From NCBI RefSeq assembly GCF_035573695.1, contig NZ_CP121694.1, positions 2,766,501 through 2,830,500 of the forward strand: a DNA stretch of 64,000 nt. The letters run 5' to 3'. The notes under the pieces were generated by a model, which did not search any database, was not told the DNA's origin, and saw only the letters and a program-made list of their open reading frames with translations. The first letter of the stretch is position 1; every line of letters starts with the position of its first letter. The position numbers and the translations under genes were made by a program. Positions 9,849-14,677 of the stretch are shown piece by piece. This DNA is from Metallumcola ferriviriculae. GTDB lineage: Bacteria > Bacillota > JADQBR01.

Positions 9849-10733
9849 TTAAAATTCATTCCGCCAACGCTGTAATAAATCGCTAACTGCCGCTCTGCTC
9901 ATGGAGAGGGCAGCGCCGATGTCTTCTAGAGAATAACCCACTTTTAGTGCTTCTTTGGCAAAAGTGACTTTAATGGGCGTAAGGTTTCGTGACCTGGACC
10001 CTGATTTCAACAGCGTAAACTGGCTCGGGTTGGTACACTTTTCTCTAAGTATTTGGTCTAACTGTATTCCGCCGCCAAATACCTTTATCCCCGAAGCACC
10101 GAAATCAGTCTCTGATGTGGCGGCAATTTCTGCAGCAACGGTAAATTCAAACTCGCCGATAAACTTACCTTTTTCATAATTAGTATTATCTTCTGTATCC
10201 ATAAAATCCTGATACATCGCCACCGCTTGGGAGTGTTCTTGGGATAGGGTGTTGAGAATTAATTTAGAATTTATCAGGCCGGTCGCGTCTGAGCCTTGCC
10301 GGTAACATTCATCGCTAGTCCATGGATACTGGCTCACTTCCTGACATATGCCCGCTTTGACAGGGTTCTGATGAATATACCTTAGCACTGCCACCAGGTA
10401 ACTCTCGTCCCGCACCAGCAATGCCTTATAGCGCCCTTGAAACACATGACCCTTCCGCTCGTGTTTCCAGTTATAATATCGAGCATAACGGCTGTTAAAC
10501 TGCTGCATCAGCACTTGCAAAGGCGTTCCCAGCCTCTGCAGCAGCAGGTGATAGTGATTGTTCATGATAACATATCCAAGCAGTCTGAAATCCATATCCG
10601 GCACCATTTCTCTTAGCAGCATCAGCAGGTATTGTTTGTCATAATCCCGCTCAAACACAAACTCTTTGTTATTACCCCGCTGAATTACATGGTAAATCGC
10701 ACCTTCAAACTCAATCCGTGGCATACGACCCAT
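9849..10733 (-). CDS. REP-associated tyrosine transposase (RAYT, IS200/IS605-like Y1 family)
   Basis: 294 residues. The N-terminal two thirds are a Y1/HUH nuclease. It starts MGRMPRIEFEGAIYHVIQRG, has the HUH motif in GYVIMNNHYHLLLQ (about residues 54-67), and has the downstream catalytic region SRYARYYNWKHERKGHVFQG with candidate tyrosines, then VLRYIHQNPVKAGI. The C-terminus ends in a helix-turn-helix (GYSLEDIGAALSMSRAAVS). RAYTs nick single-stranded DNA at REP hairpins and are thought to disperse them. This gene is flanked by oppositely oriented copies of the 45-bp palindrome that recurs across the window. GGTGGGGTG lies 5 bases before the ATG at 10733. Confidence 0.92.
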   Translation of the reverse strand: MGRMPRIEFEGAIYHVIQRGNNKEFVFERDYDKQYLLMLLREMVPDMDFRLLGYVIMNNHYHLLLQRLGTPLQVLMQQFNSRYARYYNWKHERKGHVFQGRYKALLVRDESYLVAVLRYIHQNPVKAGICQEVSQYPWTSDECYRQGSDATGLINSKLILNTLSQEHSQAVAMYQDFMDTEDNTNYEKGKFIGEFEFTVAAEIAATSETDFGASGIKVFGGGIQLDQILREKCTNPSQFTLLKSGSRSRNLTPIKVTFAKEALKVGYSLEDIGAALSMSRAAVSDLLQRWRNEF

Positions 10734-10764: not shown

Positions 10765-10809
10765 AATAACTTGACAAAAAGGTGCCTGACACCATTTTGT
10801 CAAGTTATT
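10765..10809 (-). repeat. REP-like palindrome, copy 3 (5' flank of RAYT)
   Basis: Full 45-bp copy in the opposite orientation to copy 2 (AAAAAGGTGCCTGACACC on the plus strand), 31 bases upstream of the RAYT start codon. Copies 2 and 3 are nearly equidistant (about 32 bases) from the two ends of the gene. Confidence 0.92.
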
Positions 10810-10887
10810 CAATAGCACAGCTCCGCCGCGTTTATTTGTTAAGTGATATTCTCCATTTGTTAAAATTTTCCTGCAGGTATGGTGAAT

Positions 10888-12495
10888 TTAAATTATTCCC
10901 ATGGTTGCTTGAGCAATGCTGATAGCATGAGAGTTGATACGCAGCAGGCTATTGGTTAAGTCCAGGTGCACCGAACTGGTTTCAAGAGACTTTTCATTTT
11001 CCTGGAGCCGATGGAAATGTGAGTAGCGCAGGTTCTTCTCCATACGCACTATTTCGGGATTAAGGTGGATGACGCTTCGGGCCTTTTCTTGATCCTCCTC
11101 TTCAAATGCTTCCACAGCATTATTAAAGTTTTTGGTGATGGCCTTATGCATCATTTCTATTTCGTCCCATCCTTCCCCACTCAGTTCCAATCCTTCCCGT
11201 CGGATTTTCTGGCCAATTTGGAGCATGCCCATCATCACATCGCCTAGGTGCTCTAGGTCATTACATACATAAAGCATTTTGACCTGTACCTCGGACTGGC
11301 CTTCGGAAAGATTACCTTGGGCCAAACGGGAAAGATAACGGGTAATTGAACGATAAAGGAAATCTAAAGTAAGCTCTGCTTCCTGCAGCTGGTTACGCAT
11401 CTTTTCATCGCCGGTACGTACTGCCTCCGTCAGATGGGGCAGCACATCTTGGCGTACCACCTTGGCCATACGTAAAATCTCACTTTTGGCCTGGTCAATG
11501 GCCAATTCCGGCACTTCCAGCACTGCCTCATCAAGGTAATGGGCGGCACGCTCCTGAGTGCCCGTGTCAGGCAGTATCTTTAGCATCAGGTTACCGAAAT
11601 GGCTGGTAAACGGCAAAAATATTAATAAATTTACTATGTTAAAAATAGAATGACCATTGGCGATCTGCCGGTGGATATCTGATGATGTCATGGCCACCAC
11701 TTGAGAAAACAGCCCTAAAAAGGGTAGGAATATAATTACGCCGATTACTTTAAAAATCAAGTGTGCCAATGCAACTCTTTTTGCAGCTCTGGAAGAGGCA
11801 AGACTTGATAAAAGCGCTGTGGCAGTGGTACCTATGTTGGCCCCAAGCACCATCGGGACGGTTGCTTCAAAGCCAATTACTCCCTGACTGGCCAACGACA
11901 TACCTAAAGCTATGGAAGCGGCGCTGCTTTGGACGATGGCGGTAAATACCGTTGTTACCAGCACCGTCAGCAGCGGACTTGCGGTCACATTAACTAACAT
12001 CTCAACAAACCCGGGATAAGAACGAAGCGGCTCCATGGACTGAGACATCAGGGACATGCCATAAAAAATAAAGCCAAAGCCCAATACAGCCTGACCTAAG
12101 TTCCTGGTACGCTGCTCCTTGGCAAAAAGCTTTAACGGTACTCCCAACGCCACCATCCACAAGGCGTAATCCGTCACCTTAAAGGCAATCAATTGAACGG
12201 TCAATGTGGTACCTACCGCCGACCCGAGAATTACTCCCAAGGCCTGGCCTAGGGTCATCATGGACGCATTAACCAGGCCTACTAACAGCACCGTAGCTGC
12301 GCTGCTTGACTGCAGCAGCACTGTGATCACCACGCCCACTACCACCGCCAGCAGACGGTTTCTGGTAATGCTGGCCAAAACATCCTTCATTCGGTGCGCA
12401 GATGCTTTCTGCAGTCCGTCGGAAGTCAGCTGCATCCCATATACAAATATTCCAAGGCCTCCCATGAGGCCCATCAGCACAAATGTTAATTGCAT
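10888..12495 (-). CDS. Na+/phosphate cotransporter, NptA/PhoU-fusion type
   Basis: 535 residues. The first ~310 residues hold two Na/Pi-cotransporter repeats with the duplicated signature (GVVITVLLQSSSAATVLLVG and TTVFTAIVQSSAASIALGM) and several membrane helices (GGLGIFVYGMQL, LGFGFIFYGMSL). The C-terminal ~200 residues are a helical PhoU-like domain (LYRSITRYLSRL, YVCNDLEHLGDVMMG). It imports phosphate with sodium across the cytoplasmic membrane. TAGGAG lies 9 bases before the ATG. It is directly downstream of phoU on the same strand, with only a palindrome between, so the two are probably cotranscribed. Confidence 0.92.
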   Translation of the reverse strand: MQLTFVLMGLMGGLGIFVYGMQLTSDGLQKASAHRMKDVLASITRNRLLAVVVGVVITVLLQSSSAATVLLVGLVNASMMTLGQALGVILGSAVGTTLTVQLIAFKVTDYALWMVALGVPLKLFAKEQRTRNLGQAVLGFGFIFYGMSLMSQSMEPLRSYPGFVEMLVNVTASPLLTVLVTTVFTAIVQSSAASIALGMSLASQGVIGFEATVPMVLGANIGTTATALLSSLASSRAAKRVALAHLIFKVIGVIIFLPFLGLFSQVVAMTSSDIHRQIANGHSIFNIVNLLIFLPFTSHFGNLMLKILPDTGTQERAAHYLDEAVLEVPELAIDQAKSEILRMAKVVRQDVLPHLTEAVRTGDEKMRNQLQEAELTLDFLYRSITRYLSRLAQGNLSEGQSEVQVKMLYVCNDLEHLGDVMMGMLQIGQKIRREGLELSGEGWDEIEMMHKAITKNFNNAVEAFEEEDQEKARSVIHLNPEIVRMEKNLRYSHFHRLQENEKSLETSSVHLDLTNSLLRINSHAISIAQATMGII

Positions 12496-12509: not shown

Positions 12510-12554
12510 AATAACTTGACAAAAAGGTGCCTGACACCATTTTGTCAAGTTATT
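12510..12554 (-). repeat. REP-like palindrome, copy 4, between phoU and the Na/Pi transporter
   Basis: Full 45-bp copy. One end contains the TAA stop codon of phoU (12550-12552), and the other runs directly into the TAGGAG ribosome binding site of the transporter gene. It therefore fills the whole phoU-nptA junction. Confidence 0.92.
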
Positions 12555-13227
12555 CATTTACTCTATCGAAAGGTCGACGTTCGCCGGTGACCATGTAAAT
12601 GGTCATTTCAGCGATATTAACGGCGTGATCGCCGACGCGTTCTAAGTATCTGGCCACCAAGGAAAGGTAACTGGCCTGGTCTACAAGACTGCAGTCATTT
12701 TTCATAAAGTCAATTAGTTCGTCATAAAGGTATTCAAACAATTTATCAACTTGGGTGTCATCATCATCAAGTTCCCGGGCGGAGCGGACATCCCGTTGGG
12801 TATAGGCCTTTAGACTTTTGTTTACCATTGCCAGGGCCAAATCTGCCATGCGGGGAATATCAACCAGCGGCTTAAAATACTGCCCTTTCTTTCTCAGCCG
12901 CAGGGAAACCTGAGCAATATTGACAGCATAATCGGCGATACGTTCAAGTTCTTTAATGATTCGCATGGCACTGGCCAGGGTTCTTAAGTCTTTCTCAATT
13001 GGCTGCTGCAATGAAATTATCTCCAGGGCCTTTTGTTCAATATCGTAATCCATATCATCAATCGGGTCATCCATTTCAATCACCCGGTTACACATATCTT
13101 CATCCTGATTTATCAGACCTTCCATAGATAGCATCAGAATTTCGTTGACGTCTTCCCCCATATTTAATATTTCTGCTTCTAGGGATTTAATTGCCCGTTC
13201 GTAGGCGTTTAACGGTCTGCTGATCAT
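12550..13227 (-). CDS. phoU: phosphate transport regulator PhoU
   Basis: 225 residues made of two three-helix PhoU repeats: EAEILNMGEDVNEILMLSM with IEMDDPIDDMDYDIEQKALE, then MADLALAMVNKSLKAY with ARYLERVGDHAVNIAEMTIY. The paired metal-binding motifs ELERIADYAVNIAQ and YLERVGDHAVNIAE are present. PhoU restrains phosphate uptake and signalling; here it is paired with a Na/Pi cotransporter rather than with pst genes. AAGGAAGG precedes the ATG by 8 bases. The last codons and the stop lie inside a dispersed palindrome, so the natural C-terminus may have been altered by its insertion. Confidence 0.95.
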   Translation of the reverse strand: MISRPLNAYERAIKSLEAEILNMGEDVNEILMLSMEGLINQDEDMCNRVIEMDDPIDDMDYDIEQKALEIISLQQPIEKDLRTLASAMRIIKELERIADYAVNIAQVSLRLRKKGQYFKPLVDIPRMADLALAMVNKSLKAYTQRDVRSARELDDDDTQVDKLFEYLYDELIDFMKNDCSLVDQASYLSLVARYLERVGDHAVNIAEMTIYMVTGERRPFDRVNE

Positions 13228-13456
13228 AATATCTACCTTCCTTTACTTACTGGGTATAACATCATATGCCTCAGGGCCTGTCAACTGACGTGTAATCCTG
13301 GTGACAAATCACATTAATACCTCATATGTATTGTATTATAACAAAAAAATGTGCCCTGTCCCACATAATTAACGTTAATGGAAGGTTTAACAGGGTAAAA
13401 TGCAAACTGACGCAACCCACAAAACAGAAAACTTTACCAAAATATCCTGCGGGTTA

Positions 13457-13486
13457 TTGACATATGCTCAAAATAAGCAGTATAAT
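13457..13486 (+). promoter_or_regulatory. sigma-A promoter, upstream copy
   Basis: TTGACA (13457-13462), an 18-base spacer and TATAAT (13481-13486). Both hexamers match the consensus. It is the duplicate of the promoter 220 bases downstream and would transcribe a 19-codon mini-ORF and then the second promoter region. Confidence 0.8.
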
Positions 13487-13532
13487 TGATTTAAACATAT
13501 GCTCAAAACTTTGAAAGGTGGGGATTATTATT

Positions 13533-13592
13533 ATGAAAAAAAGAATTGCAGTTCATTATAACAAAAAAATGTGCCCTGTCCCACATAATTAA
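13533..13592 (+). CDS. 19-codon upstream mini-ORF produced by the duplication
   Basis: The first copy of the gene start (ATG at 13533 with GGTGGGG upstream) reads MKKRIAV like the real gene. It then runs across the duplication junction into HYNKKMCPVPHN and a TAA at 13590-13592. It has the same ribosome binding site as the functional gene, so it is probably translated, but it is a by-product rather than a protein of known role. Confidence 0.5.
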   Translation: MKKRIAVHYNKKMCPVPHN

Positions 13593-13676
13593 CGTTAATG
13601 GAAGGTTTAACAGGGTAAAATGCAAACTGACGCAACCCACAAAACAGAAAACTTTACCAAAATATCCTGCGGGTTA

Positions 13677-13706
13677 TTGACATATGCTCAAAATAAGCAG
13701 TATAAT
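13677..13706 (+). promoter_or_regulatory. sigma-A promoter of the NifX-like gene, proximal copy
   Basis: TTGACA (13677-13682), 18-base spacer, TATAAT (13701-13706), followed after about 30 bases by GGTGGGG and the ATG at 13753. A very strong consensus promoter, consistent with control by a repressor or activator binding the adjacent direct repeats. Confidence 0.85.
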
Positions 13707-13728
13707 TGATTTAAACATATGCTCAAAA
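13680..13728 (+). promoter_or_regulatory. paired 14-base operator-like direct repeats
   Basis: ACATATGCTCAAAA occurs at 13680-13693 (in the -35/-10 spacer) and at 13715-13728 (just after the -10). The repeat step is 35 bases. The first copy is also part of a near-palindrome TTGACATATGCTCAA. The positions suggest a repressor site; the DUF134 regulator 600 bases downstream is the obvious candidate. Identical copies exist in the upstream duplicate at 13460-13473 and 13495-13508. Confidence 0.6.
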
Positions 13729-13752
13729 CTTTGAAAGGTGGGGATTATTATT

Positions 13753-14166
13753 ATGAAAAAAAGAATTGCAGTTCCTTCTGAGACACCGGGCGGTTTGGGA
13801 GCCAGCCGGTCTGCGCATTTCGGTCATTGTGATGTATTTACAATGGTTGATATTGAGGATGGAGAAATTAAAGATGTCTCCGTGCTGCCTAATAGCGACC
13901 ACGAGCACGGCGGATGTCTAGCCCCGGTAAAGGCTCTGCTGTTAAACGGCGTCCGAGCCATGGTGGTAGGTGGTATGGGACCGAACCCGCTGGCCGGATT
14001 TCAAGCGGCGGGTATCTCAGTCTATCTCGGCAGCGGTGACACTGTAAAGGATGCAGTACAGGCTTTTGTCGATAACAGTGCACCGCGAATGGATAATAAT
14101 TCGACTTGCGGCTGCGGCGGGCATGGTCATGACCATGAGCATGAGCATGGTCACTGCCACGGATAA
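13753..14166 (+). CDS. dinitrogenase iron-molybdenum cofactor biosynthesis (NifX/NifB-C) family protein with His-rich tail
   Basis: 137 residues of the PF02579 type: MKKRIAVPSETPGGLGASRS, then SAHFGHCDVFTMVDIEDGEI, and MVVGGMGPNPLAGFQAAGI, the ligand-binding fold of NifX/NifY and the NifB C-terminus. The tail after residue 118 is a metal-binding run with two Cys and many His (CGCGGHGHDHEHEHGHCHG). Members outside nif operons are thought to bind metal clusters or act in Fe-S/metal homeostasis. The start at 13753 has GGTGGGG upstream. One of only a few plus-strand genes; followed by a DUF134 regulator. Confidence 0.88.
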   Translation: MKKRIAVPSETPGGLGASRSAHFGHCDVFTMVDIEDGEIKDVSVLPNSDHEHGGCLAPVKALLLNGVRAMVVGGMGPNPLAGFQAAGISVYLGSGDTVKDAVQAFVDNSAPRMDNNSTCGCGGHGHDHEHEHGHCHG

Positions 14167-14241: not shown

Positions 14242-14286
14242 AATAACTTGACAAAAAGGTGCCTGGCACCATTTTGTCAAGTTATT
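14242..14286 (-). repeat. REP-like palindrome, copy 5
   Basis: Full 45-bp copy with the perfectly self-complementary core GGTGCCTGGCACC. It sits between the NifX-like gene and the DUF134 gene, ending 5 bases before the latter's ribosome binding site. Confidence 0.92.
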
Positions 14287-14302: not shown

Positions 14303-14677
14303 ATGCCGCGGCCTAAGAAATGTCGCAGGGTGGGGAATATTCCGAAGGAAGCGTATTTTAAGCCGGCGGGTATACCAATTAGGGAACTTGAAGAGGTCAA
14401 CCTGCTGGTGGAAGAGCTGGAAGCGATCAGACTTAAGGATTTAACCGGGCTAAATCAAGAGGAATGTGCTCAGCGCATGAATGTATCCCGGCCTACCTTT
14501 CAGCGGATTCTCACCAAGGCACGGCAAAAAATCGCCTCAGCCTTGGTAGACGGTAAGGCGATTAAGGTTGAGGGCGGGGATTTCCGAATGCATTTGCAGC
14601 AATCTAACTGTCCGAAATGCCGTGGCGATTCTGCCGGCGAACAGGATGCCTGTCCCTTCTGTGGTCACGAAAAATAA
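14303..14677 (+). CDS. DUF134 (UPF0251) HTH transcriptional regulator with C-terminal zinc ribbon
   Basis: 124 residues starting MPRPKKCRRVGNIPKEAYFK at the ATG 14303, 10 bases after a GGGGG box; an upstream in-frame TTG lies inside the palindrome and is unlikely. A sigma-70 region-4-like helix-turn-helix follows (EELEAIRLKDLTGLNQEECA, then MNVSRPTFQRILTKARQKIA). The C-terminus is a four-Cys zinc ribbon (CPKCRGDSAGEQDACPFCG). The family is often found next to NifX/NifB-like genes, as here, and probably regulates them; the ACATATGCTCAAAA repeats are candidate targets. A terminator follows. Confidence 0.88.
   Translation: MPRPKKCRRVGNIPKEAYFKPAGIPIRELEEVNLLVEELEAIRLKDLTGLNQEECAQRMNVSRPTFQRILTKARQKIASALVDGKAIKVEGGDFRMHLQQSNCPKCRGDSAGEQDACPFCGHEK

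What the first reader, a model, noticed from the sequence alone, without database searches (positions are those of the whole stretch)
13335..13774. Perfect 220-bp tandem duplication doubling a strong promoter and gene start
Two identical units place promoter, operator-like repeats, ribosome binding site and seven codons in tandem, creating a 19-codon mini-ORF and two promoters for one metal-cofactor-type gene. Zero divergence means a very recent event, possibly under selection for higher or altered expression, or unstable and phase-variable.
Basis: seen in the sequence. Interest (0 to 1): 0.6.

Follow-up and report, generated by a model that had tools for sequence, protein, structure and literature searches.

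The report
Doubled promoter of an iron-cofactor gene
A 220-base control region that starts an iron-sulphur/metal-cofactor type gene has been copied once, exactly and head to tail, in this one bacterium; such copying is an ordinary kind of mutation, but what was copied is a promoter with a twin binding site that recurs in many anaerobic bacteria and whose likely regulator has not been studied.

Summary
In detail: 13335-13774 is two identical 220-bp units in a one-contig 3.72-Mb genome, present nowhere else in it. The unit is the intergenic region between phoU (leftward) and a Nitro_FeMo-Co (PF02579, NifX/ORP-like) gene (rightward), followed by a DUF134 HTH gene. Each copy holds a 12/12 sigma-70 promoter, a leftward extended -10 promoter, RBS and seven codons. 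Its left edge is the last base of the phoU -10 hexamer, so both promoters are doubled and the inner pair converges. Both same-family relatives have a single copy, so the duplication is lineage-specific. It is probably real, because the assembly resolves about 15 near-identical 1.7-kb IS copies. The 'operator-like repeats' are real: TTGACATATGNTCA over the -35 plus a second CATATG palindrome about 34 bp on. The motif occurs 73 times in 54 of 199 Bacillota genomes (reversed control 7), at least 33 sites lying within 500 bp upstream of a PF02579 or DUF134 gene. Most likely a chance tandem duplication of a DUF134-type operator/promoter cassette, modestly raising expression and prone to collapse. 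Selection, phase variation and age are unproven. The candidate DUF134 operator, for which I found no paper in the held library, is the more interesting part.

The parts
13335..13554 (+). duplication unit, copy 1
   Evidence: identical to copy 2 over 220 bp
13555..13774 (+). duplication unit, copy 2 (the one joined to the intact gene)
13457..13486 (+). promoter copy 1: TTGACA-18-TATAAT
   Evidence: 12 of 12; conserved in single-copy relatives
13677..13706 (+). promoter copy 2: TTGACA-18-TATAAT
13457..13470 (+). operator A, copy 1 (TTGACATATGCTCA, overlaps -35)
   Evidence: motif conserved near PF02579/DUF134 genes
13492..13505 (+). operator B, copy 1 (TAAACATATGCTCA, 35 bp downstream)
   Evidence: second site at 34-36 bp recurs in other genomes
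13677..13690 (+). operator A, copy 2
13712..13725 (+). operator B, copy 2
13335..13362 (-). phoU-directed promoter, copy 1 (GGGACA-16-TATAAT, TG extended -10); its last -10 base is the left edge of the unit
   Evidence: TGnTATAAT kept in L003 and L004
13555..13582 (-). phoU-directed promoter, copy 2, convergent with promoter copy 1
13533..13592 (+). 19-aa mini-ORF made by the junction (seven codons of the gene plus 12)
13753..14166 (+). intact Nitro_FeMo-Co (PF02579) gene, NifX/ORP-like, His/Cys-rich C terminus
14303..14677 (+). DUF134 (PF02001) predicted DNA-binding protein, sigma-70 region-4-like HTH and C-terminal CxxC pairs
12550..13227 (-). phoU, divergent neighbour
10888..12495 (-). Na/Pi cotransporter with PhoU domain, downstream of phoU

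Best explanation
It is a genuine, lineage-specific tandem duplication, made without a homologous repeat at the breakpoints, of a conserved bidirectional promoter cassette between phoU and a Nitro_FeMo-Co gene. SHOWN: exact 2 x 220 bp; promoter, twin CATATG operators, RBS and seven codons in each copy; single copy in the two same-family relatives; the operator motif is a recurrent genomic element upstream of PF02579, DUF134 and DUF5320 genes in Bacillota. INFERRED: the motif is the operator of the DUF134 protein encoded just downstream, which represses by covering the -35 and the start region; the doubled cassette gives two repressible promoters in series, so the output of the gene rises modestly (at most about additively, less interference from the convergent inner phoU promoter and the useless first RBS/mini-ORF). 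The array can return to one copy or grow by slippage or recombination. No adaptive role is needed.
For: Exact repeat, only these two copies genome-wide. No identity between the two breakpoints at the junction (0 bp: left-flank base 13334 is T against C at 13554/13774; 13335/13555 is A against C at 13775). Relatives L003/L021 and L004/L020 have one copy of the promoter and motif. Motif: 73 sites in 54 of 199 genomes against 7 for the reversed control; 33 of 73 within 500 bp upstream of a listed DUF134 or PF02579 gene, 31 of these same-strand; 51 of 54 motif genomes hold DUF134 against 138 of all 199 (Fisher p about 6e-7, species not independent). Second site with 3 or fewer of 12 mismatches in 14 of 29 distinct motif sites against 1 of 58 control windows; -10 of at least 5 of 6 in 21 of 29. 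The assembly resolves 13 full-length plus two tandem IS copies at 100% reported identity in one contig, which short reads alone could not do.
Against: No reads, RNA or isolates were seen, so reality, expression effect and stability are inferred. DUF134 binding to the motif is association only; 3 of 54 motif genomes lack a detected DUF134 gene and 40 of 73 sites have no listed PF02579/DUF134 gene within 500 bp downstream (some of these have DUF5320 or others, some unexplained). 87 of 138 DUF134 genomes lack the exact motif. Survival of a recombination-prone perfect duplication in the sequenced culture could hint at selection.
Confidence: 0.66

Rival explanations
1. Adaptive or switchable promoter amplification: the second promoter was selected for higher expression of the PF02579 gene (metal or redox stress, laboratory culture), and copy number 1/2/n varies in the population.
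For: Zero divergence; both promoters and all operators doubled; perfect repeats of this size are expected to recombine (general knowledge).
Against: No population data; the two relatives' loci are single copy; the record shows exactly 2.0 copies, no trace of other copy numbers; of the 54 motif-bearing genomes no other has two same-strand motif sites about 220 bp apart.
Confidence: 0.15
2. Assembly artefact: one copy in the cell, two in the record.
For: Perfect identity and no junction homology are what an artificial repeat would look like; reads were not available.
Against: Single contig that places 13 further full-length, essentially identical 1.7-kb IS copies plus a tandem IS dimer, so reads long enough to span 440 bp were very probably used; no other exact tandem with a unit of 100 bp or more in 800 kb sampled except the IS dimer; the locus is far from the contig ends.
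Confidence: 0.1
3. A new regulatory device: four operators in two pairs 220 bp apart (20.95 turns at 10.5 bp per turn) allow cooperative looping by the regulator, while the convergent inner promoters and the mini-ORF add interference, giving tighter or bistable control rather than more expression.
For: Operators in helical phase by arithmetic; convergent promoters 1(+) and 2(-); conserved twin-operator design.
Against: No evidence of looping or of DUF134 oligomers; phasing of one spacing can be chance (about 1 in 10).
Confidence: 0.08

Closest known systems
Short tandem (regulatory) duplications in bacterial genomes, promoter duplication as an up-expression mutation (general knowledge, recalled)
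   Same: Head-to-tail exact copy of a promoter-containing segment; unstable in principle; can raise expression.
   Different: Here no phenotype, selection or copy-number change is known; the unit carries two divergent promoters and a twin operator.
Nitro_FeMo-Co / ORP-type proteins (PF02579; solved relatives MTH1175 1eo1, 1t3v, 1o13, ORP 2wfb)
   Same: The gene is over the PF02579 cut-off (76.1 against 26.3 bits) and aligns with ORP and MTH1175.
   Different: No nitrogenase gene was noted next to it; exact function unknown. MrpORP work (PMC6345978, abstract read) shows Fe-S binding for a related domain in Desulfovibrio; the orp operons there are reported as sigma54-dependent (PMC3897727, start of abstract in a listing), whereas here the promoter is sigma-70-like with CATATG operators.
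Tandem IS insertion in the same genome (L109:9366-12819)
   Same: Also an exact tandem in this genome.
   Different: That one is two copies of a multi-copy transposase element; the 220-bp unit has no transposase, no other copies, and lies in a regulatory region.

Membership tests
exact tandem duplication | adjacent head-to-tail copies, high identity | tested here: met
   220/220 identical, adjacent
exact tandem duplication | single copy in relatives (derived state) | tested here: met
   2 of 2 same-family species have one copy
mobile-element or VNTR origin | unit repeated elsewhere in the genome or transposase in the unit | tested here: not met
   only two matches genome-wide
phase-variable locus | copy number differs between cells or isolates | not testable with these tools
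   no other genome of the genus was among the relatives offered; no reads
PF02579 Nitro_FeMo-Co | score over curated cut-off | tested here: met
   76.1 bits against 26.3
DUF134-associated CATATG regulon (proposed here) | TTGACATATGNTCA over a sigma-70 -35, upstream of PF02579/DUF134/DUF5320 genes | tested here: met
   both copies in the window
DUF134-associated CATATG regulon (proposed here) | DUF134 protein binds the motif | not testable with these tools
   association only; no solved DUF134 relative found by sequence

The most novel reading that the evidence does not exclude
TTGACATATGNTCA with a second CATATG palindrome about 34 bp downstream is the operator of the unstudied DUF134 (UPF0251) regulators, which control PF02579, DUF5320 and NifU-like iron-sulphur/redox genes across anaerobic Bacillota. 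In this genome a fresh tandem duplication has turned its only exact target promoter into a four-operator, two-promoter array that shifts the set-point of that autoregulated circuit.
Probability: 0.35. Interest if true: 0.6.

Novelty: new member of a known kind. Interest (0 to 1): 0.38.

Why it matters
The duplication itself is an ordinary mutation, useful mainly as a natural one-versus-two-copy experiment on a promoter. What it copies points to a conserved regulatory site next to a family of predicted DNA-binding proteins (DUF134) with no studied operator in the papers searched, and so makes the regulation of a widespread set of anaerobic Fe-S/metal-cofactor genes directly testable.

Tried and rejected
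IS or VNTR origin: rejected, the unit has no other copy. Microhomology-driven slippage: no identity at the breakpoints, so not supported in its simplest form. LexA/DinR box (GAAC-N4-GTTC, recalled): rejected as the meaning of the CATATG element here, since the window sites read GACATATGCTC and AACATATGCTC. ATTAACGTTAAT palindrome (13368-13379, 13588-13599) as the operator: not conserved in L003 or L004, so left aside. Organism name: the closest records are MAGs named Soudan_17 and GB_MAG15_131. 'Metallumcola ferriviriculae' MK1 from the Soudan mine (seen only as a reference-list entry, and in taxonomy) is a guess that I could not test, because the paper is not held. Plasmid collection search gave one weak hit over 5% of the query. 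In the first motif scan of upstream regions I overlooked that loci from whole-genome searches are not turned to the gene strand; one search repeats it on both strands and replaces it. The comparison (22 strand hits in 45 PF02579 loci, 14 in 30 DUF134 loci, none in 20 first-order Markov resamplings) counts each palindromic site on both strands and includes duplicate loci (L003/L021, L004/L020, and L025/L026 and L074/L075 from sister genomes), so I lean instead.

Full report
OBSERVATION. The 220-bp perfect tandem at 13335-13774 is real in the record. The genome is one contig of 3,720,236 bp and holds the unit only here, twice. The copy-1 start codon at 13533 runs across the junction into a 19-aa frame; the intact gene starts at 13753.

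SETTING. Leftward lie phoU (12550-13227) and a Na/Pi cotransporter (10888-12495). Rightward lie the PF02579 gene (13753-14166) and a DUF134 gene (14303-14677). The unit therefore covers most of the divergent intergenic region plus 22 bases of the PF02579 gene. The promoter scan (15 found against 3.3 +/- 1.7 in shuffles for the region) gives a 12-of-12 sigma-70 promoter in each copy (13457-13486, 13677-13706) and, on the minus strand, a TG-extended 10-of-12 promoter in each copy (13362-13335, 13582-13555) whose -10 ends exactly at the unit's left edge. The TGnTATAAT element is also present on the phoU side in both relatives. The tandem thus reads: phoU promoter 1 leftward, gene promoter 1 rightward, phoU promoter 2 leftward, gene promoter 2 rightward; the inner two face each other. 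No terminator-like site was found between the copies.

RELATIVES. The nearest relatives by protein are L003 (Soudan_17 MAG, 62%) and L004 (GB_MAG15_131 MAG, 60%). In the whole-genome set the two same-family species (G001, G002) carry what reads as the same loci (L021, L020). In both, phoU lies divergent and the promoter block TTATTGACATATG(C/T)TCA...TATAAT-like...CATATG is present once. In L003 the promoter precedes a small zinc-ribbon-like gene and two PF02579 genes, then two ATPase-like genes and DUF134 (names of the ATPase-like and ribbon genes are my reading of the sequence, not a family search). The duplication is therefore derived in the window's lineage. No other genome of its genus was among the 61 genomes of the relatives search, so within-species variation could not be seen.

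MECHANISM OF ORIGIN. The two breakpoints share no base at the junction, so simple slippage between short repeats is not indicated; an illegitimate event is inferred. Zero differences in 220 sites bounds divergence at about 1.4% (rule of three), which says recent or homogenised, not a date.

ARTEFACT CHECK. Forty 20-kb stretches (800 kb) contain one other exact tandem of a long unit, a 1727-bp transposase element (L109), plus a 44-bp x2 tandem (L160) and a 14-bp array (L165). That 1727-bp element has the two tandem copies, 13 further full-length copies and one partial copy, all at 100% reported identity, placed in one contig. Resolving these needs long reads or finishing, which would also resolve 440 bp. 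This is indirect; reads were not available.

THE OPERATOR-LIKE REPEATS. TTGACATATGNTCA was sought in 199 Bacillota genomes: 73 sites in 54 genomes, reversed-pattern control 7. Against the DUF134 places and PF02579 places (the lists were cut off), 33 of 73 sites lie within 500 bp upstream of such a gene, 31 on the same strand, in 30 genomes; 38 within 1.5 kb. 51 of the 54 motif genomes hold a DUF134 match against 138 of all 199 (Fisher p about 6e-7; the species are related, so this p is too small). Conversely 87 of 138 DUF134 genomes lack the exact motif. Of the 30 motif loci fetched, the next gene is DUF5320 in 7 (Pfam), PF02579 in 5 (three by Pfam; L120 and L144) and DUF134 in 6. NifU_N, FUR, metallo-beta-lactamase and C_GCAxxG_C_C genes follow in one each, and PF02579 follows within 500 bp in two more (L143, L145). 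Six (L116, L122, L129, L131, L132, L139) I could not explain; L129 lies upstream of, but on the opposite strand to, a DUF134 gene. Among 29 distinct sites with enough flank, 21 have a -10 of at least 5 of 6 at 16-19 bp, and 14 have a second CATATG-type site with 3 or fewer of 12 mismatches, mostly 34-36 bp downstream, against 1 of 58 in control windows. The window's site has a 6-of-6 -10 and a second site with one mismatch at 35 bp. In the window's own genome the exact first site occurs only in the two copies.

WHAT IT MOST LIKELY DOES. The design, one palindrome over the -35 and one near the start, next to the gene of a predicted HTH protein, suggests negative autoregulation by DUF134 (inferred). 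The PF02579 protein is related to solved ORP and MTH1175 proteins. For a related domain in Desulfovibrio, Fe-S binding and transfer are reported (PMC6345978, abstract only). Doubling the cassette should give two such promoters in series, probably with a modest rise of expression, some interference from the inner convergent phoU promoter, and a leader with a mini-ORF on the longer transcript. None of this was measured.

LITERATURE. Searches of the held library for DUF134 with iron-molybdenum cofactor (0 papers), the motif strings (0), DUF134 (22 papers, 20 listed with titles and abstract starts only; none of these is visibly about a bacterial DUF134 operator), UPF0251/COG1342/DUF5320 (4) and combinations (2) gave no description of this operator. 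One of these, PMC5886521 (one passage read), lists an insertion in a UPF0251 gene among secondary mutations of adapted rex-deleted strains of Thermoanaerobacterium. Regulon databases and subscription papers were not searchable. Promoter-duplication searches were seen as listings only.

VERDICT. Observation confirmed; interpretation partly supported; an ordinary kind of mutation in an interesting regulatory module.

Noticed in passing
window 14242-14286; 12 exact core copies in the genome: A 22-bp-arm hairpin (AAGGTGCCTGGCACC core) between the PF02579 and DUF134 genes is a dispersed repeat: 12 copies genome-wide against 0 for the reversed control; it is REP-like and could also act as a terminator.
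   Followed up: partly
window 9849-10733: ORF whose N-terminal sequence looks like a REP-associated (Y1/RAYT-type) transposase (recalled resemblance, no family search made), near the dispersed hairpins.
   Followed up: no
window 10765-10811 and 12510-12556: 47-bp exact direct repeat flanking the Na/Pi cotransporter gene, 1745 bp apart.
   Followed up: no
L109:9366-12819: Exact tandem dimer of a 1727-bp transposase-like element (474-aa ORF) present in about 15 nearly identical copies in the genome, a sign of recent IS activity.
   Followed up: partly
199 Bacillota genomes; loci L116-L145: Candidate DUF134 operator TTGACATATGNTCA with a second site about 34 bp on, upstream of DUF5320, PF02579, DUF134 and NifU-like genes.
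   Followed up: yes
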